From NCBI GenBank assembly GCA_030530785.1, contig JAUMUJ010000010.1, positions 1 through 59,896 on the forward strand: 59,896 bases of DNA, given 5' to 3'. Source of the stretch: Moraxella sp. GTDB lineage: Bacteria > Pseudomonadota > Gammaproteobacteria > Pseudomonadales > Moraxellaceae. Shown here piece by piece: positions 2,727-28,311 of this stretch. A model generated the notes under the pieces. That model made no database searches, was not told the origin of the DNA, and was given only the letters and a program-made list of their open reading frames with translations. The position numbers and the translations under genes are program-made. Numbering within the stretch: position 1 is the stretch's first letter; each line of letters begins with the position of its first letter.

Positions 2727-3464
2727 ATGAAAAAGATTTTTTGGTTGGCATCAGCCATCGGTTTGACGGTCAGTGGTGCAAACGCCCAAAGTGGCACAAT
2801 CAGTATCAGCTCTGAAAATGGCAGAAAGGTGTTTGTTGTCGCAAAAAGCAAGCCAGAGACTAAGGTGTTAAGCGATGCTGAGCTAAACCGAGCCATTGAT
2901 GGTTTGATGGCAAGCAACCAAAACCGCTTGACGGGCATCACAGCAGGTGATAATAGCCACTTAGAAGAGTCTATCAATGCAGGCTATGATGAAGGCTATC
3001 GTGAAACCCAATTGGCATTTAATAACCACAATTCCATTACCGCCACCTTGAACAGTGATGCACCACGCATTGCTGCCCGTGCTGCATCTCGTGCGGCACA
3101 TAGCAAGAGTGTGGGTCGCTGTGCATTATACGTTCGTAAGGCGTTGCAGTCAGCAGGCTATCGTTTCACGCCACAACCATCTGCCTATATGTATGCCAGC
3201 AAAGGCATCCTAGCGGGGGCAGGTTTTACCAAACTTAGCAATCATAACTACACTCCCCAAGTTGGTGATGTGGCAGTATTTAATCGTAGCAGTAAGCACC
3301 CTCACGGTCATATTCAAATCTATGATGGCTATCAGTGGGTATCAGATTTTCGCCAAAATAAATTTAGCCCTTACAGTCAGCATAATGGCTATACCGTATG
3401 GCGTGATACTCGCAATGTGGACGCATCTAACAGCATTAACGTACATTTGGCATTTAATGACTGA
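2727..3464 (+). CDS. Secreted CHAP/NlpC-P60-like peptidoglycan amidase
   Basis: 245 residues with a signal peptide (MKKIFWLASAIGLTVSGANA, cleavage after ANA). After a linker of about 90 residues, the C-terminal half carries a cysteine-histidine hydrolase layout: VGRCALYVRKAL (candidate catalytic Cys near residue 132) and GDVAVF followed by HPHGHIQIY (candidate catalytic His), then an aromatic strand ending in YTVWR. This is the order seen in CHAP and NlpC/P60 amidases that cut peptide stems of peptidoglycan, so a periplasmic or exported cell-wall hydrolase is likely. No immunity-type gene sits beside it; the next gene is convergent. An inverted repeat lies in its upstream region. Confidence 0.65.
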   Translation: MKKIFWLASAIGLTVSGANAQSGTISISSENGRKVFVVAKSKPETKVLSDAELNRAIDGLMASNQNRLTGITAGDNSHLEESINAGYDEGYRETQLAFNNHNSITATLNSDAPRIAARAASRAAHSKSVGRCALYVRKALQSAGYRFTPQPSAYMYASKGILAGAGFTKLSNHNYTPQVGDVAVFNRSSKHPHGHIQIYDGYQWVSDFRQNKFSPYSQHNGYTVWRDTRNVDASNSINVHLAFND

Positions 3465-5212: not shown

Positions 5213-7105
5213 GTGAGTGATATGGTAAAAAGTATCTTATTATGGCTTGTGATTATTGCTGTGGTGGTCATGGTATTTAGCAGTCTTGACCGCTCATCAA
5301 ATAAAGCAGATGTGATGAATTATTCTGCATTTGTAACGGCGGTATCCGAAGGCGAGATTAAAAAAGTAGAGATTGATGGTCAAGAGATTGTCGGCACAAA
5401 GGTAAATGGTTCAGATTTTGAGACCGTGCGTCCTGCCATTGCTGATAATGAACTGATGCCCCTACTTCGTCAGCACAATGTAGAGGTGCAAGGCACAATC
5501 CCCGAGCGTCAAGGCGTGGGGACGCAACTTTTGATTGCGGCGTTTCCAATTTTGCTCATCATCGGACTATTTTGGTTGTTCACTCGTGGTATGGGTGGCG
5601 GTGCTGGTGGTGGCATGGGTGGACGTAACCCCATGAGTTTTGGTAAATCCAAAGCCAAAATGCTCTCTGAGGACCAAATCAAAGTTACCTTTGCTGATGT
5701 GGCAGGCTGTGAAGAATCCAAACAAGAAGTGGTGGAAGTGGTGGACTTTTTAAAAGACCCTGCCAAATTTACCAAACTTGGGGCAACCATTCCTCGTGGC
5801 GTGCTGATGGTAGGTCCACCTGGTACAGGTAAAACCCTACTTGCCAAGGCTATCGCAGGCGAAGCCAAAGTGCCATTTTTTAGCATCTCAGGCTCGGATT
5901 TTGTGGAGATGTTTGTCGGGGTGGGTGCCAGCCGTGTTCGTGATATGTTTGAACAGGCCAAAAAGAACGCCCCATGTATCATCTTTATTGATGAGATTGA
6001 TGCGGTCGGTCGTCATCGTGGCAGTGGCATGGGTGGTGGTCATGATGAGCGTGAGCAGACATTAAACCAGCTTTTGGTAGAGATGGACGGTTTTGAAGGT
6101 AATGATGGGGTGATTGTCATTGCTGCCACCAACCGTGTGGATGTGTTGGATAAAGCCTTGCTCCGTCCTGGTCGTTTTGACCGTCAAGTGTCGGTCGGTC
6201 TGCCCGACATTAAAGGTCGTGAGCAAATCCTGAATGTCCATCTTAAAAAACTCCCCCAAACCATCGGAGTAGATGTCAATGCTTTGGCTCGTGGTACGCC
6301 GGGATTTAGTGGAGCTCAGCTTGCCAATTTGGTCAATGAAGCCGCCTTGTTTGCCGCTCGCCGTAACAAGCACAGCGTGGATATGAACGACTTTGAAGAT
6401 GCCAAAGATAAGCTGTATATGGGGCCTGAACGTAAATCTATGGTGTTGCGTGAAGAAGAACGGCGAGCCACCGCTTATCACGAAGCAGGTCATGCCTTAG
6501 TTGCCCAGCTGTTACCAAACACCGACCCTGTCCATAAAGTAACCATCATGCCTCGTGGTTGGGCGTTGGGGGTAACGTGGCAGTTGCCCGAACAAGACAC
6601 GGTCAGCAGTTATAGCGATAAAATGCTAAATGACATTGCCATCTTGTTTGGTGGACGCATTGCCGAAGAGATTTTTATTCATCGTAAGTCCACAGGGGCA
6701 TCTAACGATTTTGAGCGAGCAACTAAAATGGCTCGTGCGATGGTTACCAAATATGGCATGAGCGACAAACTGGGCGTGATGGTCTATGAAGATGAAGAGC
6801 AGGCAGGCTATTTTGGTGGGTCAAGTCGCACCATCAGTGAAGCAACCCAACAAAAGGTAGATGAAGAGATTCGCCGTATCTTAGAAGAGCAATATGATGT
6901 GGCATATCAGCTTATCAACGACAACCATGACAAAATGCACGCCATGGTGGACGCTTTGATGAAGTGGGAAACCATTGACCGTGAGCAGTTTTTACAAATC
7001 ATGAATGGCGAAACCCCACGAGAGCCAAAAGAGTATCAGCACGAAGTACCAACGGTAAACATCGTCAAATCAGATGAATTGCCACCCCCGCTACCGACCG
7101 CTTGA
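5213..7105 (+). CDS. ftsH: ATP-dependent zinc metalloprotease FtsH
   Basis: A membrane-anchored AAA+ protease that degrades short-lived membrane and cytoplasmic proteins such as LpxC in E. coli. The order of parts is an N-terminal membrane helix, a periplasmic domain, a second helix, a Gly-rich linker, Walker A GPPGTGKT (about residue 201), Walker B IIFIDE, SRH region and the zinc site HEAGH (about residue 423). The frame is open from a TTG at 5171, but an AGGAAG site at 5202-5207 stands five bases before GTG 5213. That start gives MSDMVKS, aligning with the E. coli N-terminus, and 630 residues. A strong terminator follows at 7109-7138. Confidence 0.95.
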
Positions 7106-18444: not shown

Positions 18445-18921
18445 TTATTTGCTATCAGGACAAAACTCATAATATTCACGTTCGCTATCATGTTTATCTG
18501 ACAAACAGGCTTCTCTAAAACTTAATAATTCTTGATGTTCAAAGTCTTTTAAGGTTTGCCAAATGGGTTGATAATCTGTATCTTTGGGTATGTGTATGGC
18601 AAAATAATCCGGACTAAAATATTTAAATTCTATGTTAAATTTCAGCAGTGCATTTTTTATGGTTTGTCTGGTGCCATCTGTGGGATTTAATAACACAACC
18701 TGTAAAGTGCTATTACCTGAGAACTCCGAAAAATCATCAAATGAAATAACGCCATTGTCATTAGTGATGGTAATAATATCTTTCTTTGCTAAATTATAGG
18801 CAAATAAGGGAATGTCATCAATTTGACAGCGATTGTCATCAAGAAAAATTACCCGTAATGTTTCTTGGTCAAGATTATCTTCAAGGTTTTTAAAGTATAC
18901 GGTAATATAATCATGTACCAC
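18445..18921 (-). CDS. DUF4265-like probable immunity protein
   Basis: 158 residues, acidic, soluble. CQIDDIPLFAYNLAKKDII, then TLQVVLLN and the late YFAIHIPKDTDYQPIWQTL fit the DUF4265 family, whose members often sit beside polymorphic toxins. It ends directly at the toxin fragment and probably belonged to a different toxin, because the DUF596-like gene holds the immunity position for that fragment. The base composition is clearly more AT-rich than that of metXW next to it, which suggests transfer. Confidence 0.6.
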   Translation of the reverse strand: MVHDYITVYFKNLEDNLDQETLRVIFLDDNRCQIDDIPLFAYNLAKKDIITITNDNGVISFDDFSEFSGNSTLQVVLLNPTDGTRQTIKNALLKFNIEFKYFSPDYFAIHIPKDTDYQPIWQTLKDFEHQELLSFREACLSDKHDSEREYYEFCPDSK

Positions 18922-21031: not shown

Positions 21032-21484
21032 TCAGTCATCACACAGCTCATCAGAATAACTGTCTTTACCTGATACAATGATGGTGATGATTTTGCCTTG
21101 TTTTTCCCAAACCTGAGCTCCAATACTTTCAAATTCATAAACACTTTGGGGATAGCCATCATCTTCAAAATCCAACACATCAACATCACCCACATAATCC
21201 GCTCCCGTAACGGATTTAAACTCATCAATGGTCAAGCCAATAAGATTTGTGCCTTGATAAATGAGCGTTTCATAACAAAAAATGCTCTGAATTTTTTGTT
21301 GTTTATTGACCGATACGATGCGATAGTCATCAAGGTGATAATGCTCTGTACTATACTCATCTTTGGGTTCAAATCTCCATTGGGCAAGCTCGGTTTGGTA
21401 CTTAACAATATCATCATCAAATTTAAAGATGCCAACTGATTGCCAGGGTGCAAACTCTAATACATTATCTACCACGTCTGCCAT
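21032..21484 (-). CDS. Putative immunity-type protein, copy 2 of the 150-residue family
   Basis: 150 residues, very acidic, soluble. It has FAPWQSVGIFKFDDDIV at the start, the stretch NLIGLTIDEFKSVTGADYV, and an end VWEKQGKIITIIVSGKDSYS that is identical to the copy at 22062 (about 75% identity overall by eye). No family could be named. Small acidic proteins in tandem divergent copies beside toxin remnants are typical of immunity genes; this is inference. It lies last in the unit and ends at its own terminator. Confidence 0.55.
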   Translation of the reverse strand: MADVVDNVLEFAPWQSVGIFKFDDDIVKYQTELAQWRFEPKDEYSTEHYHLDDYRIVSVNKQQKIQSIFCYETLIYQGTNLIGLTIDEFKSVTGADYVGDVDVLDFEDDGYPQSVYEFESIGAQVWEKQGKIITIIVSGKDSYSDELCDD

Positions 21485-21546
21485 GCTCTTCCCCTTTTGC
21501 CTTTTTTTTGGGCGGTTTCTTTAATTTTGGTTTCAATACTTTCTAT

Positions 21547-22017
21547 CTAATAGTCATTATAAATTTTTAAGTTCTCAACTTCTTTGGGTGGTTTTGCCCA
21601 CGTAAATGGTTTGTCATTCTTATCAAATTCACCAGTTGGAACCATGCCAATATCATCGCTATGCTTCTCAAAAATGGTATAGTAAACAATTTCACCACGA
21701 CCATCATAAACGGTAGATTTTACTTTTTGTTCGGGAATAAGCCATTGGGATTTTTCAGAGCGAACCAAAACCAACCCATTACCAACTTTACGATAATCTT
21801 TATAACCATCATCAGTATATTCACGTTTACCAATGATGGTAACATGGTCAGCCCCAAAAATGATTGTGGCGACACGCTTACCATCTATATATTCATCAAT
21901 TTCGTCTTGAATGGTGTTGCCATTTTTATCTAGTACCAAGATACGTTGTGCTTCTTCATTGGCATTGCGATATAGGATTTTATCATATGTGTCGTATTCT
22001 AAGATTTCTGGGTGCAT
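21547..22017 (-). CDS. Putative immunity-type protein, copy 2 of the 156-residue family
   Basis: 156 residues. It starts MHPEILEYD and carries ILVLDKNGNTIQDEIDEYID and VTIIGKREYTDDGYKDYRKV, shared almost exactly with the copy at 22609. The C-terminal third (GMVPTGEFDKNDKPFTW) is clearly diverged. No signal peptide, no helix and no named family. It precedes the 150-residue gene in the same unit, with about 60 bases between them. Confidence 0.55.
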   Translation of the reverse strand: MHPEILEYDTYDKILYRNANEEAQRILVLDKNGNTIQDEIDEYIDGKRVATIIFGADHVTIIGKREYTDDGYKDYRKVGNGLVLVRSEKSQWLIPEQKVKSTVYDGRGEIVYYTIFEKHSDDIGMVPTGEFDKNDKPFTWAKPPKEVENLKIYNDY

Positions 22018-22035
22018 TTTAATCCTAAGGTTAGA

Positions 22036-22062
22036 TAAAAAGGCGAACAGTTCGCCTTTTAT
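22036..22062 (-). terminator. Terminator of the first (proximal) immunity-like unit
   Basis: AAAAGGCGAA and TTCGCCTTTT arms around three bases, directly past the stop of the 150-residue gene at 22062. It matches the hairpin at 21005-21030, so the duplicated block includes the terminator. Confidence 0.85.
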
Positions 22063-22514
22063 TAATCATCACATGGTTCATCAGAATAACTGTCTTTACC
22101 TGATACAATGATGGTTATGATTTTGCCTTGTTTTTCCCACACCTGAGCCCCAATACTTTCAAATTCATAAACACTTTGGGGATAGCCGTCATCTTCAAAA
22201 TCCAACACATCAAAATCGTCCACATAATCTGCTCCCGTAATGGCTTTAAATTCATCAATGGTCAGTCCAATCAGATTAACACCTTGATAGATGAGTGTTT
22301 CATAACAAAAGATACTGCCAATTTTTCCATCACGAATGCTTATCATGCGAGTATCATCATTAAGATGATAGTGTTCCACACCGTATTCATTTTTTGGTTC
22401 AAGCCACCAATCGGTCAATTTGTCTTGATAATTAACGATGTCATCATCAAATTTAAAAATGCCAACCGATTGCCAAGGGATAAATTCTAAAACATTATCT
22501 GCCACGTCTGCCAT
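22062..22514 (-). CDS. Putative immunity-type protein, copy 1 of the 150-residue family
   Basis: 150 residues, paralog of the gene at 21032. The N-terminal (FIPWQSVGIFKFDDDIV) and C-terminal regions are conserved, while the middle differs (RMISIRDGKIGSIFCYET against the other copy). It sits between the two 156/157-residue genes in the duplicated array. If these are immunity proteins, the variable middle is where toxin specificity would be expected; this is speculation. Confidence 0.55.
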   Translation of the reverse strand: MADVADNVLEFIPWQSVGIFKFDDDIVNYQDKLTDWWLEPKNEYGVEHYHLNDDTRMISIRDGKIGSIFCYETLIYQGVNLIGLTIDEFKAITGADYVDDFDVLDFEDDGYPQSVYEFESIGAQVWEKQGKIITIIVSGKDSYSDEPCDD

Positions 22515-22608
22515 GTTCTTCTCCTTTTGCTTTTTTTGGTGTGGGAATTTTTCTTTGATGATGTGATTTGCTTGTTATTGATGACACATCGGTTTTAAGG
22601 CTTGATGC

Positions 22609-23082
22609 CTAATAATCGCTATAAGCTTGTAAATTTTTGGCTTCATCGGGAGGGTTGTCCCAACCAAATTCATGACCATTTTTATCAAAATTCCCCATGC
22701 TGACCATACCAATATTAGGGTCTGGGTCTTTTTCAATGAGAATATAAAATGCCAATTCTCCCTGTGCGTTATAAAAACTTGATTTGGCTTTTTCGCCGAC
22801 AGTAAGCCATTTATCTTGCATGGTTCTTACCAAAACCAAATCATCACCAACTTTGCGATAGTCTTTATAACCATTATCAGTATATTCACGTTTACCAATG
22901 ATGGTAACATGGTCAGCCCCAAAGACAACATTGGCAACGTGCTTACCATCTATATATTCACAAATCTCATCTTGAATGGTGTTGCCATTTTTGTCTAGCA
23001 CTAAGATACGTTGTGTTTCATCATCGCTGTTGCGGTAATAAATTTGGGTGTGATTGTCGTACTCTAAGATTTCTGGGTACAT
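22609..23082 (-). CDS. Putative immunity-type protein, copy 1 of the 157-residue family
   Basis: 157 residues, paralog of the gene at 21547. It begins MYPEILEYDNHTQIYYR. The block VLDKNGNTIQDEICEYIDGK is almost the same as in copy 2, while the last 50 residues (IEKDPDPNIGMVSMGNF) have diverged. It is 23 bases downstream of the stop of the secreted 138-residue protein, so it is likely on its transcript and in the place expected for an immunity gene. Confidence 0.55.
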   Translation of the reverse strand: MYPEILEYDNHTQIYYRNSDDETQRILVLDKNGNTIQDEICEYIDGKHVANVVFGADHVTIIGKREYTDNGYKDYRKVGDDLVLVRTMQDKWLTVGEKAKSSFYNAQGELAFYILIEKDPDPNIGMVSMGNFDKNGHEFGWDNPPDEAKNLQAYSDY

Positions 23083-23105
23083 TTATTAATCCTTCTTTAA
23101 ATTGT

Positions 23106-23522
23106 TTACTTTGGTTTATTGGGTTTAAGAGGAGCTGGCGTTTGAGACCATTTATCAGCTTCGGCAGATACATATTTTCTGCAACCATTTAATAAAGCAT
23201 CTGTAATATACTGGTTTAGGAAACGTCTTTGCTCTTCATATTTTACCCTATGTCCTTGATAAGAACCACTATCAATATGTTTGCTTTTCTTACTGTTATA
23301 ACTATGATAAAGACCTAATGGGTCGTTAATTAAATCATTATAACGTTTTTTAACAATGGTAACTTGATAATCAATCTTATCAGTATAAATTTTACATTGT
23401 TGTGCGGTTTTTTCTTTATTGTTCTTTTTGGTATTAGCATCTGCTGGTAGCACACCAGCCAAGCTGACAACCATAGCCATTGCCAGACAGGTAAAAGTCC
23501 GACCAAGATTGAATGATGTCAT
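23106..23522 (-). CDS. Small secreted protein, possible free-standing toxin domain
   Basis: 138 residues with a signal peptide (AMAMVVSLAGVLPADA). The mature part is basic: CKIYTDKIDYQVTIVKKRYN, NDPLGLYH, then SYQGHRVKYEEQRRFLNQYI and a tail NGCRKY ending in PAPLKPNKPK. The pattern G-H-x3-Y-x3-Q-x2-L followed by a C and a Pro-rich end recalls a tail domain found at the C-terminus of some Rhs and other polymorphic toxins; this comes from memory and was not searched. It stands at the head of the duplicated two-gene array, the position of a toxin before its immunity genes. Confidence 0.55.
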   Translation of the reverse strand: MTSFNLGRTFTCLAMAMVVSLAGVLPADANTKKNNKEKTAQQCKIYTDKIDYQVTIVKKRYNDLINDPLGLYHSYNSKKSKHIDSGSYQGHRVKYEEQRRFLNQYITDALLNGCRKYVSAEADKWSQTPAPLKPNKPK

Positions 23523-26936: not shown

Positions 26937-26966
26937 TTGATTATTTTTTTGGTCTTGTGGTATAAA
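26937..26966 (+). promoter_or_regulatory. Promoter of the deaminase-toxin gene
   Basis: TTGATT and TATAAA with an 18-base spacer. AAGGG at 26985-26989 stands nine bases before ATG 26999, so transcription and translation signals both point to 26999 as the original start. Confidence 0.5.
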
Positions 26967-26998
26967 TATGATTATTTTTAGTACAAGGGTGTTAATTC

Positions 26999-27668
26999 AT
27001 GAGCAAGCCATTGATCTTTGTTTGGGTGGTCATCAGTATGGTGGCGTTATCTTTGCTGTCGCCTGCGGTGGCAAACAGTAAAATCTACCATTAAACAGTC
27101 ATCATCTCAAACCATAACTTCGTATCAGGGCGTTAAATATGGTAATAATGTTTTTGATGAAAGTTTTAGAACGCCAGAAGCAGACAGAGTGGGTCAGAAA
27201 GTAATTGGTTTGTTAGATGGCATCATATCAAAAGATGATGCTAGGATGGTTAGTGTCATGCTTCATGCAAATAGAACGGTTAGCGTTGGGATTTCGGGAG
27301 ACTTAAACTCTTCAAGAACACAGCAACGTATACAAATAGCTCAAAAAGCTTTGGATAAGAGCAGTGTTGGTGCATACACAATCGGTACTGGCACTTTGGA
27401 TGGGTCGCATGGTCTTATTAAAGTGGATACAGGAAACAGGGTTGGTGTATGTGCAGAGCCTAAATGTGCTTTTGTGGCTAAAAATAATCCCAGTCCTGTG
27501 ATTGGCTTTGCAATTTTATGGTGTGGTAGAGGTGTAAATCCTTATCCGCTCAGTCAAAAGGAGCTGAGTGGCAGAAATCTTAGCTCAAACCAAATGTATA
27601 TGTGCGACACCTGTCAAGCAAGTAGGTTGGCTTATGAGCGATATATCAATAACGCAAATAAAAAATAA
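26999..27668 (+). CDS. Secreted toxin with a cytidine-deaminase-like fold, frame broken after the signal peptide
   Basis: ATG 26999 opens a signal peptide (MSKPLIFVWVVISMVALSLL, ending SPAVA) that stops at 27094. The next frame, open from 27018, carries the main domain. A one-base shift near 27080 would join them. In the 27018 frame a hairpin MVSVMLHANRTVSVGISG is followed by CAE (about residue 145) and CDTC (about 196-199). These are the zinc-site C-x-E and C-x2-C motifs of the deaminase superfamily, which includes many polymorphic toxins that edit nucleic acids. An SMI1/KNR4 immunity gene follows after 9 bases. The deaminase part is intact; whether it is expressed depends on the shift or an internal start. 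Confidence 0.65.
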
Positions 27669-27677
27669 GGAGTTAAT

Positions 27678-28202
27678 ATGACCATTTTATCTCAAATGAT
27701 TAACTTAATGCTCCAAAAAGTAAAAATCAAACCTGTTCCCAAGCAGGAGCTTGATGAATTTTTATCACAAAATCATATTAACATCTGTGATGATTATTAT
27801 CAGTTTTTACTTAATTACGGTTATGGTGATTTTTTAAAATATGGTTATGCTGACTTAACATTTGATGATGTTAAGTTATATTATTTAGATGATGAAATAT
27901 TTGATGATGCAAAATTGCCACCAAATTGTGATTATATTGGCGGTGATTTAAGTACAGAGCCATTATGTATTGACAAATTTAATAAAAATATTTATATCTT
28001 TGCTGACGGAGAGAGAGACTTTTGGTATTACGGTGGATTAAGAGAAATATTATTTTATTATTTGTTTGGTTATATTAAAAGTTTATATTTATTTGATAGT
28101 ATTAAGACAAATATTAAAATAAACGATGTTGATAAATTTAAAAGCGAATATATGAATTATGAGATAAAAGATATACATTTTGGTAAAAAGTACTTTTTTT
28201 AA
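27678..28202 (+). CDS. SMI1/KNR4 (SUKH) family immunity protein
   Basis: 174 residues. It has the SUKH plan: LDEFLSQNHINICDDYYQFL (the 'P-x-D-Y-x-x-F-L'-like helix), LNYGYGDFL with a glycine turn, and a central YIGGDLSTEPLCID and YIFADGERDFWYYGG. SUKH proteins neutralise many kinds of toxins, including nucleases and deaminases. The gene is strikingly AT-rich against its surroundings, which suggests transfer. It starts nine bases after the toxin stop with an AAGGAG-like site, forming a toxin-immunity pair. Confidence 0.78.
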   Translation: MTILSQMINLMLQKVKIKPVPKQELDEFLSQNHINICDDYYQFLLNYGYGDFLKYGYADLTFDDVKLYYLDDEIFDDAKLPPNCDYIGGDLSTEPLCIDKFNKNIYIFADGERDFWYYGGLREILFYYLFGYIKSLYLFDSIKTNIKINDVDKFKSEYMNYEIKDIHFGKKYFF

Positions 28203-28283
28203 AGATGGCAGTCTTATTATTTGTAATGATTTATTTTATAGCTATAATATTTATCAAGGTGGTATCTTAAATCATGTGATATG

Positions 28284-28311
28284 ACAAACCCACGCAGTAG
28301 CATGGGTTTGT
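28284..28311. terminator. Hairpin between the SUKH gene and the zinc-ribbon gene
   Basis: ACAAACCCA and TGGGTTTGT arms around ten bases. It lies between convergent genes and can serve both. Confidence 0.6.

What the first reader, a model, noticed from the sequence alone, without database searches (positions are those of the whole stretch)
26937..28202. Deaminase-fold toxin followed by SUKH immunity gene
The 27018-27668 frame has the zinc-site pair of deaminases (CAE about residue 145, CDTC about 196-199) after a beta hairpin in the right place. A very AT-rich SMI1/KNR4-type gene follows nine bases later. Deaminases are known warheads of polymorphic toxins and SUKH proteins are known immunity proteins (established). 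A version led by its own signal peptide and promoter, rather than by a giant exoprotein, would be an unusual free-standing nucleic-acid- or nucleotide-editing toxin. Its target is unknown.
Basis: partly seen in the sequence, partly recalled or inferred. Interest (0 to 1): 0.8.

Follow-up and report, generated by a model that had tools for sequence, protein, structure and literature searches.

The report
Decayed deaminase-like toxin and immunity cassette
This stretch holds a worn-out copy of a rare bacterial weapon gene, probably a base-altering (deaminase-like) toxin next to its antidote gene; its export signal is no longer in the same reading frame as the toxin, so it looks like a relic here, although the enzyme part is conserved in distant bacteria.

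Summary
The motifs are real: ORF 27018-27668 has CAE at residues 145-147 and CDTC at 196-199, and a GC-poor SMI1/KNR4-like ORF starts nine bases later. The "own signal peptide" is half right: a good signal sequence (26999-27094) exists but lies in another frame; the TTG-started N-terminus is its out-of-frame reading. A second copy in the same genome is also interrupted just after its signal peptide and again between the motifs. The window's immunity ORF loses about 27 residues at a frame change.

Relatives: an orphan cassette after a PT-VENN (CDI-type) pretoxin, the C-terminus of a Burkholderia arboris Rhs protein (hhalign E 1.3e-10), and two Burkholderiaceae proteins outside such loci. CAEP (8 of 8 rows) and both CxxC cysteines (7 of 7) are invariant. 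No Pfam or NCBIfam model reaches its cut-off for the domain, and no convincing PDB match was found. All seven C-termini end 7-27 residues after the last cysteine, too short for the last strands of a standard deaminase.

Verdict: remnant of a new variant of deaminase-like polymorphic toxin with SUKH-like immunity. Deaminase-SUKH pairing is already in print. Target unknown.

The parts
26999..27094 (+). Signal-peptide frame (ATG to TAA), not in frame with the toxin body
   Evidence: Three-frame reading, stop position, hydropathy 2.75; homologous signal region before the second copy, 61 of 94 bases identical
27018..27668 (+). Mechanical TTG ORF holding the toxin body; residues 1-25 are the signal DNA out of frame
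27120..27665 (+). Toxin body with homology to relatives (from SYQG, residue 35)
   Evidence: dN/dS about 0.19 against the second copy over 118 codons
27450..27461 (+). CAEP motif, proposed zinc ligand C145 and catalytic E147
   Evidence: Invariant in 8 of 8 rows
27603..27614 (+). CDTC motif, proposed zinc ligands C196 and C199
   Evidence: Both cysteines invariant in 7 of 7 rows
27678..28202 (+). SUKH-like (SMI1/KNR4) immunity ORF, 174 aa, shorter than its relative
   Evidence: PF09346 E 0.019, below cut-off; 52% identical to a 203-aa ORF in G011
28201..28284 (+). Out-of-frame continuation matching the end of the intact immunity relative
   Evidence: 27 codons, 18 of 27 identical to L033; frame change at a T-run

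Best explanation
This is the remnant of a small Sec-exported interbacterial toxin and its immunity gene. The toxin body belongs to a rare deaminase-like family that no searched library models. If the fold is right, C145, C196 and C199 hold a zinc ion and E147 shuttles protons while water replaces an amino group, so the toxin would deaminate bases in nucleic acid or nucleotides in a competitor's cytoplasm, and the SUKH-like protein would block it in the producer. In this copy the signal-peptide frame and toxin frame are out of register and the immunity frame ends early, so as written no exported toxin is made. Shown: gene order, motifs and their conservation, the frame breaks, past purifying selection on the toxin frame, relatives in CDI-type and Rhs settings. 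Inferred: deaminase fold, zinc, target, immunity action, and decay rather than regulated switching.
For: Motifs invariant in 8 of 8 and 7 of 7 rows. Real homology to the Rhs C-terminus: hhalign E 1.3e-10 over 156 columns, 0 of 100 shuffles as good. Same toxin-then-SUKH-like order in the window, the second copy, G289, B. arboris and G1344. [HCD]xE plus CxxC is the printed signature of toxin deaminases and SUKH their printed immunity (PMC3482391, passages). One relative (G289) touches PF00383, cytidine deaminase zinc region, at E 0.011-0.039, below cut-off. dN/dS about 0.19 (118 toxin codons) and 0.20 (68 immunity codons) between copies. Decay: breaks in both copies' toxin and immunity genes while long neighbouring ORFs of 644 to 1403 aa are open.
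Against: No deaminase model reaches cut-off; no PDB match better than E 0.28, both weak ones unrelated. hhalign to TadA and RibD gave no support. The chains end 7-27 residues after the last cysteine, against 65-80 in three TadA loci, and E-to-C spacing is 45-60 against 28, so the last strands of a standard deaminase are missing. SUKH identity is weak: 3 of 6 relatives hit PF09346, best E 0.0024, below cut-off; hhalign to a clear SUKH-1 protein, and between the Burkholderia and Moraxella-type immunity proteins, is not significant. The two distant Burkholderiaceae rows were found with a motif-bearing profile, so their motif conservation is partly by selection.
Confidence: 0.62

Rival explanations
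1. The domain is a zinc protein of another fold and chemistry; CxE and CxxC arose apart from deaminases.
For: Missing C-terminal strands and long motif spacing; no deaminase profile match.
Against: The order helix, hairpin (VSVMLH..TVSVGISG), CAE, strand, CxxC fits a deaminase core by my reading; G289 relative touches PF00383; toxin plus SUKH-like setting.
Confidence: 0.2
2. A silent cassette kept as a donor for recombination into larger CDI- or Rhs-type toxin genes rather than plain decay.
For: The G289 relative is an orphan cassette after a PT-VENN segment; silent cassettes without a start codon are known for MafB (PMC4287609, passages).
Against: No large recipient toxin gene is near either copy in the stretches read; the copies carry their own signal peptide, which a donor cassette does not need.
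Confidence: 0.1
3. A cytosolic toxin-antitoxin-like pair started at TTG 27018 or an internal start, without export.
For: The body frame is open for 217 codons; relatives without an Rhs or CDI body exist in Burkholderiaceae.
Against: No ribosome-binding-like sequence seen by eye before TTG 27018, while one (AAGGG) precedes ATG 26999; the first 34 residues have no counterpart in relatives.
Confidence: 0.07
4. Regulated switching: signal and toxin are brought into one frame in some cells by slippage or recoding.
For: Both copies are interrupted at nearly the same place, just after the signal peptide; low dN/dS.
Against: The two interruptions differ in kind (frame change, in-frame TGA), no long repeat lies at either junction, and the second copy has a further break between its motifs.
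Confidence: 0.05

Closest known systems
Toxin deaminases of polymorphic toxin systems (sce3516-like, YwqJ, BURPS668_1122, XOO2897, DddA/SCP1.201 groups; PMC3482391, PMC7901873, passages)
   Same: C/HxE and CxxC signature, C-terminal toxin position in Rhs and CDI-type loci, SUKH immunity printed for several of them
   Different: No match to a toxin-deaminase Pfam model in the rows scanned; CAEP rather than the HAE usual in sce3516-like; no room for a C-terminal hairpin after the last helix
MafB toxins and mafB-CT cassettes of Neisseria (PMC4287609, passages)
   Same: Sec signal peptide, variable toxin end, immunity gene, silent cassettes
   Different: No room for a MafB N-terminal domain: the toxin body starts within about 15 residues of the signal peptide; no maf gene noticed nearby
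SitA lipoprotein toxins of Myxococcus (PMC5562445, passages)
   Same: Exported polymorphic toxin without a giant exoprotein; SitA1 has a SUKH-family immunity protein
   Different: SitA has a lipobox and needs outer-membrane exchange, and SitA1 carries a nuclease domain; none seen here
Sec-exported alarmone synthetases (PMC12691689, passages)
   Same: A nucleotide-acting toxic enzyme led only by a Sec signal peptide
   Different: Those lack immunity genes and are another enzyme family

Membership tests
Deaminase superfamily | [HCD]xE and CxxC active-site residues | tested here: met
   CAE 8 of 8 rows, CxxC 7 of 7 rows
Deaminase superfamily | Core fold with strands 4 and 5 after the CxxC helix | tested here: inconclusive
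   Structure prediction off; only 7-27 residues follow the last cysteine in 7 of 7 C-termini, too few for both strands
Deaminase superfamily | Profile match to a known deaminase family | tested here: not met
   Only PF00383 below cut-off for the G289 member, E 0.011; hhalign to TadA and RibD not significant
Deaminase superfamily | Zinc binding and base deamination | not testable with these tools
   Needs protein
PF14424, PF14428, PF14431 and PF14437 toxin deaminases | Match to the Pfam model | tested here: not met
   None listed for 8 of 9 rows (E limit 10, or 1 for the L043 row); L094, near-identical to L043, not scanned
SUKH (SMI1/KNR4) immunity proteins | Match to a SUKH model above cut-off | tested here: not met
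   PF09346 E 0.019 for the window ORF; 3 of 6 relatives, best E 0.0024, below cut-off; hhalign to a clear SUKH-1 not significant
SUKH (SMI1/KNR4) immunity proteins | Gene directly downstream of a polymorphic toxin | tested here: met
   Window, second copy, G289, B. arboris, G1344
Free-standing Sec-exported toxin | Signal peptide and toxin in one open frame | tested here: not met
   Different frames in the window; in-frame TGA in the second copy

The most novel reading that the evidence does not exclude
A previously unmodelled family of zinc 'short deaminases' (CAEP ... CxxC, without the usual last two strands) that serves as a warhead in at least three settings (Sec-only, CDI-type, Rhs) and also occurs in Burkholderiaceae proteins without an immunity gene noticed beside them: a minimal deaminase architecture with an unknown nucleic-acid or nucleotide substrate.
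Probability: 0.4. Interest if true: 0.6.

Novelty: new variant of a known kind. Interest (0 to 1): 0.4.

Why it matters
Deaminase toxins can mutate surviving target cells, and DddA has been made into base editors (PMC7901873 abstract and passages; PMC10442228 abstract). A family that keeps the catalytic residues but lacks the usual C-terminal strands would show how little of the fold is enough and might have a new substrate. The copies in this genome look like relics, so the value lies in the family, best studied from the open Rhs and Burkholderiaceae relatives.

Tried and rejected
Family models: Pfam, NCBIfam and PADLOC gave no model above cut-off for the toxin or its relatives' toxin domain. 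PF23145 (E 0.0043-0.011), PF00816, PF10764 and PF17167 are short or below cut-off; I take them as chance.

Collections: the genome contigs protein scan matched patterns in 23 stretches, none a relative; a degenerate motif pattern found 0 in genome contigs and 0 in viral contigs. Three viral contigs protein scans found no relative. Plasmids and phages: no match for the window toxin at E 1e-5, for the G289 cassette at 0.01, for the immunity protein in plasmids at 0.001, for the Rhs domain in phages at 10 or, besides itself, in plasmids at 0.001. The Burkholderia relative appeared only at a plasmid E-value limit of 10 (1 of 15 records) and was then confirmed by hhalign. The other 14 records were not opened; the single record was opened and shows acyltransferase and recombinase genes.

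False hits dropped: G050 reads as a repeat protein; G514 lies opposite a fabF-like ORF; the 16 weak hits beyond the own genome show no open frame with both motifs; G1233 has neither motif.

Fold link: against TadA, column-shuffled profiles scored as well in 9 of 100, 2 of 60, and 0 of 50 and 1 of 50, but the alignments cover 7 columns in the wrong place. Against RibD: 16 of 100, 25 of 60, 14 of 50 and 7 of 50. One shuffle scored about 131 against RibD and (whole alignment) 106, which I cannot explain. Searches read minus-strand loci on the wrong strand; both were redone. PF14431 (YwqJ) was found in 0 of 249 sampled genomes, so I had none to compare; my impression that YwqJ is nearest is recall.

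The upstream DNA gave only short matches elsewhere (22-40 bases, 6 of 22 genomes, own included); the own-genome one overlaps the end of a hemE-like ORF; the other five were not opened. Papers: searches list no title or abstract naming this family; most subscription journals are not held.

Full report
What is there. The ORF is not what its start suggests. The DNA before 27094 encodes a clear signal peptide from ATG 26999, ending at TAA 27092, in a different frame. Homology to relatives starts near residue 35 of the TTG ORF (27120). The signal is present but does not lead the toxin in this copy.

The second copy. The same genome (G000) holds a paralogue on another contig (L008) in the same order: signal peptide from L008:5967, toxin body, SUKH-like gene. 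There signal and body share a frame, but a TGA lies just after the signal peptide, the body frame ends right after CAEPKC and homology continues in another frame, and the SUKH-like gene is in two frames. The two signal regions share 61 of 94 bases. Counted in separate pieces, dN/dS between the copies is about 0.19 over 118 toxin codons (dS 1.9, near saturation), not computable over a further 63 (dN 0.28, dS saturated), and 0.20 over 68 immunity codons; the window immunity ORF against its G011 relative gives 0.34 over 174 codons. The frames were long under selection as proteins, and the breaks are probably younger than that divergence.

The immunity ORF. It also stops early: the next 27 codons in another frame match the end of an intact 203-aa relative in G011 (18 of 27 identical), and the change falls at a run of T. 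Long neighbouring ORFs (644 to 1403 aa; ftsH-, ileS-, ligA-, rpoB- and rpoC-like by my reading) are open, which speaks against poor sequence, so I read this as decay. Why both copies are interrupted just after the signal peptide is unexplained.

Where relatives are. In the genus, 2 of 22 genomes matched: this one and G013, which holds a broken fragment. At family level 4 of 348 matched: G289 is new and G050 is a false hit. At order level 2 of 390 matched at E 0.01, the own genome and one false hit. In a phylum sample 17 of 398 matched at E 0.1, of which only the own genome holds up. In a Burkholderiaceae sample 4 of 299 matched at E 0.01; G1344, G1325 and G1194 carry both motifs, G1233 does not. 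These samples overlap, so the counts must not be added.

CDI-type and Rhs relatives. The G289 locus has a PT-VENN pretoxin segment (E 2.2e-12), then the cassette with CAEP...PCLTC, then two SUKH-like ORFs, the second shorter. Against the window, BLASTP gives E 2e-20 for the toxin and 2e-9 for the first SUKH-like protein, each for a single comparison. In Burkholderia arboris a 1463-aa Rhs ORF (Rhs core domain E 5.8e-22) ends in a domain that aligns over 156 columns at E 1.3e-10, with 0 of 100 shuffles as good; a SUKH-like ORF overlaps its end. G1344 holds a nearly identical copy.

Other relatives. G1325 (L095) and G1194 (L096) are proteins outside such loci (hhalign E 8.7e-9 and 1.1e-6 over the motif region). 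Their downstream ORFs in the roughly 1.5 kb held do not look SUKH-like by eye; they were not scanned.

What the domain is. Across nine rows, C145-A146-E147-P148 (8 of 8), C196, C199, G163 and M193 (7 of 7 each) and T52 and T87 (6 of 6) are invariant. Two rows (L043, L094) are nearly identical, and the two most distant rows were found with a motif-bearing profile, so the independent count is smaller. This is the signature printed for toxin deaminases, [HCD]xE and CxxC (PMC3482391, passages). One member, the G289 cassette, touches PF00383 below cut-off.

Against a deaminase. No toxin-deaminase model was listed; no PDB match is better than E 0.28; TadA and RibD profiles do not align sensibly. The proteins end 7-27 residues after the last cysteine and space the motifs by 45-60 residues, against 65-80 and 28 in three TadA loci. 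That leaves no room for the last two strands. I put deaminase-type chemistry at about 0.75, and the whole explanation with export and decay at 0.62.

The neighbour. The SUKH label rests on weak but repeated matches (PF09346 for 3 of 6 relatives, best E 0.0024, below cut-off; also weak for the B. arboris neighbour) and on position after the toxin. hhalign to a clear SUKH-1 protein of the G289 locus fails, as does comparison with the B. arboris neighbour. An open 203-aa relative stands without a toxin in G011, and another lies among small ORFs after a VENN-bearing fragment in G008 (motif by eye).

How it would work. In working relatives the toxin domain would be carried into a competitor by a CDI-type or Rhs vehicle, or exported by Sec alone in the ancestor of the window copy. 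The zinc site would deaminate a base in the target cytoplasm, and the SUKH-like protein would protect the producer. None of this is shown here. Sec-only export is a recognised class among polymorphic toxins (Table 1 of PMC3482391, passage). How such a protein would cross the outer membrane and enter a target is unknown.

Known or new. Deaminase plus SUKH is established (PMC3482391, passages; its Deaminases section read). Not covered by the libraries searched is this CAEP...CxxC family with a short tail, hence 'new variant of a known kind'.

Noticed in passing
window 21032-23522 (- strand): A 138-aa protein with a signal-like start (23106-23522) followed by four small ORFs that are two alternating look-alike pairs, an immunity-array-like layout. 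Relatives in the own genome include an open signal-led ORF with two look-alike ORFs after it (G000:C43, L040:3480-5196), a broken copy on C33 and one in G020. Small signal-led toxin-like genes may be a habit of this genome.
   Followed up: partly
L009 (G013:C1:1706000-1718500), 6243-6401 (- strand): Broken toxin fragment lying directly beside ORFs that read as drug-resistance genes; described only.
   Followed up: no
L033:6814-7425 (G011): Open 203-aa SUKH-like immunity relative without a toxin gene beside it.
   Followed up: partly
L095:121-1692 (G1325): A relative whose frame carries CxxC zinc-ribbon-like pairs and a P/Y-rich stretch before the deaminase-like end.
   Followed up: no
window 2727-3464 (+) and 18445-18921 (-): A CHAP-domain protein with a signal-like start (PF05257, E 1.1e-6) and a DUF4265 protein (PF14085, E 7.3e-21).
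   Followed up: no
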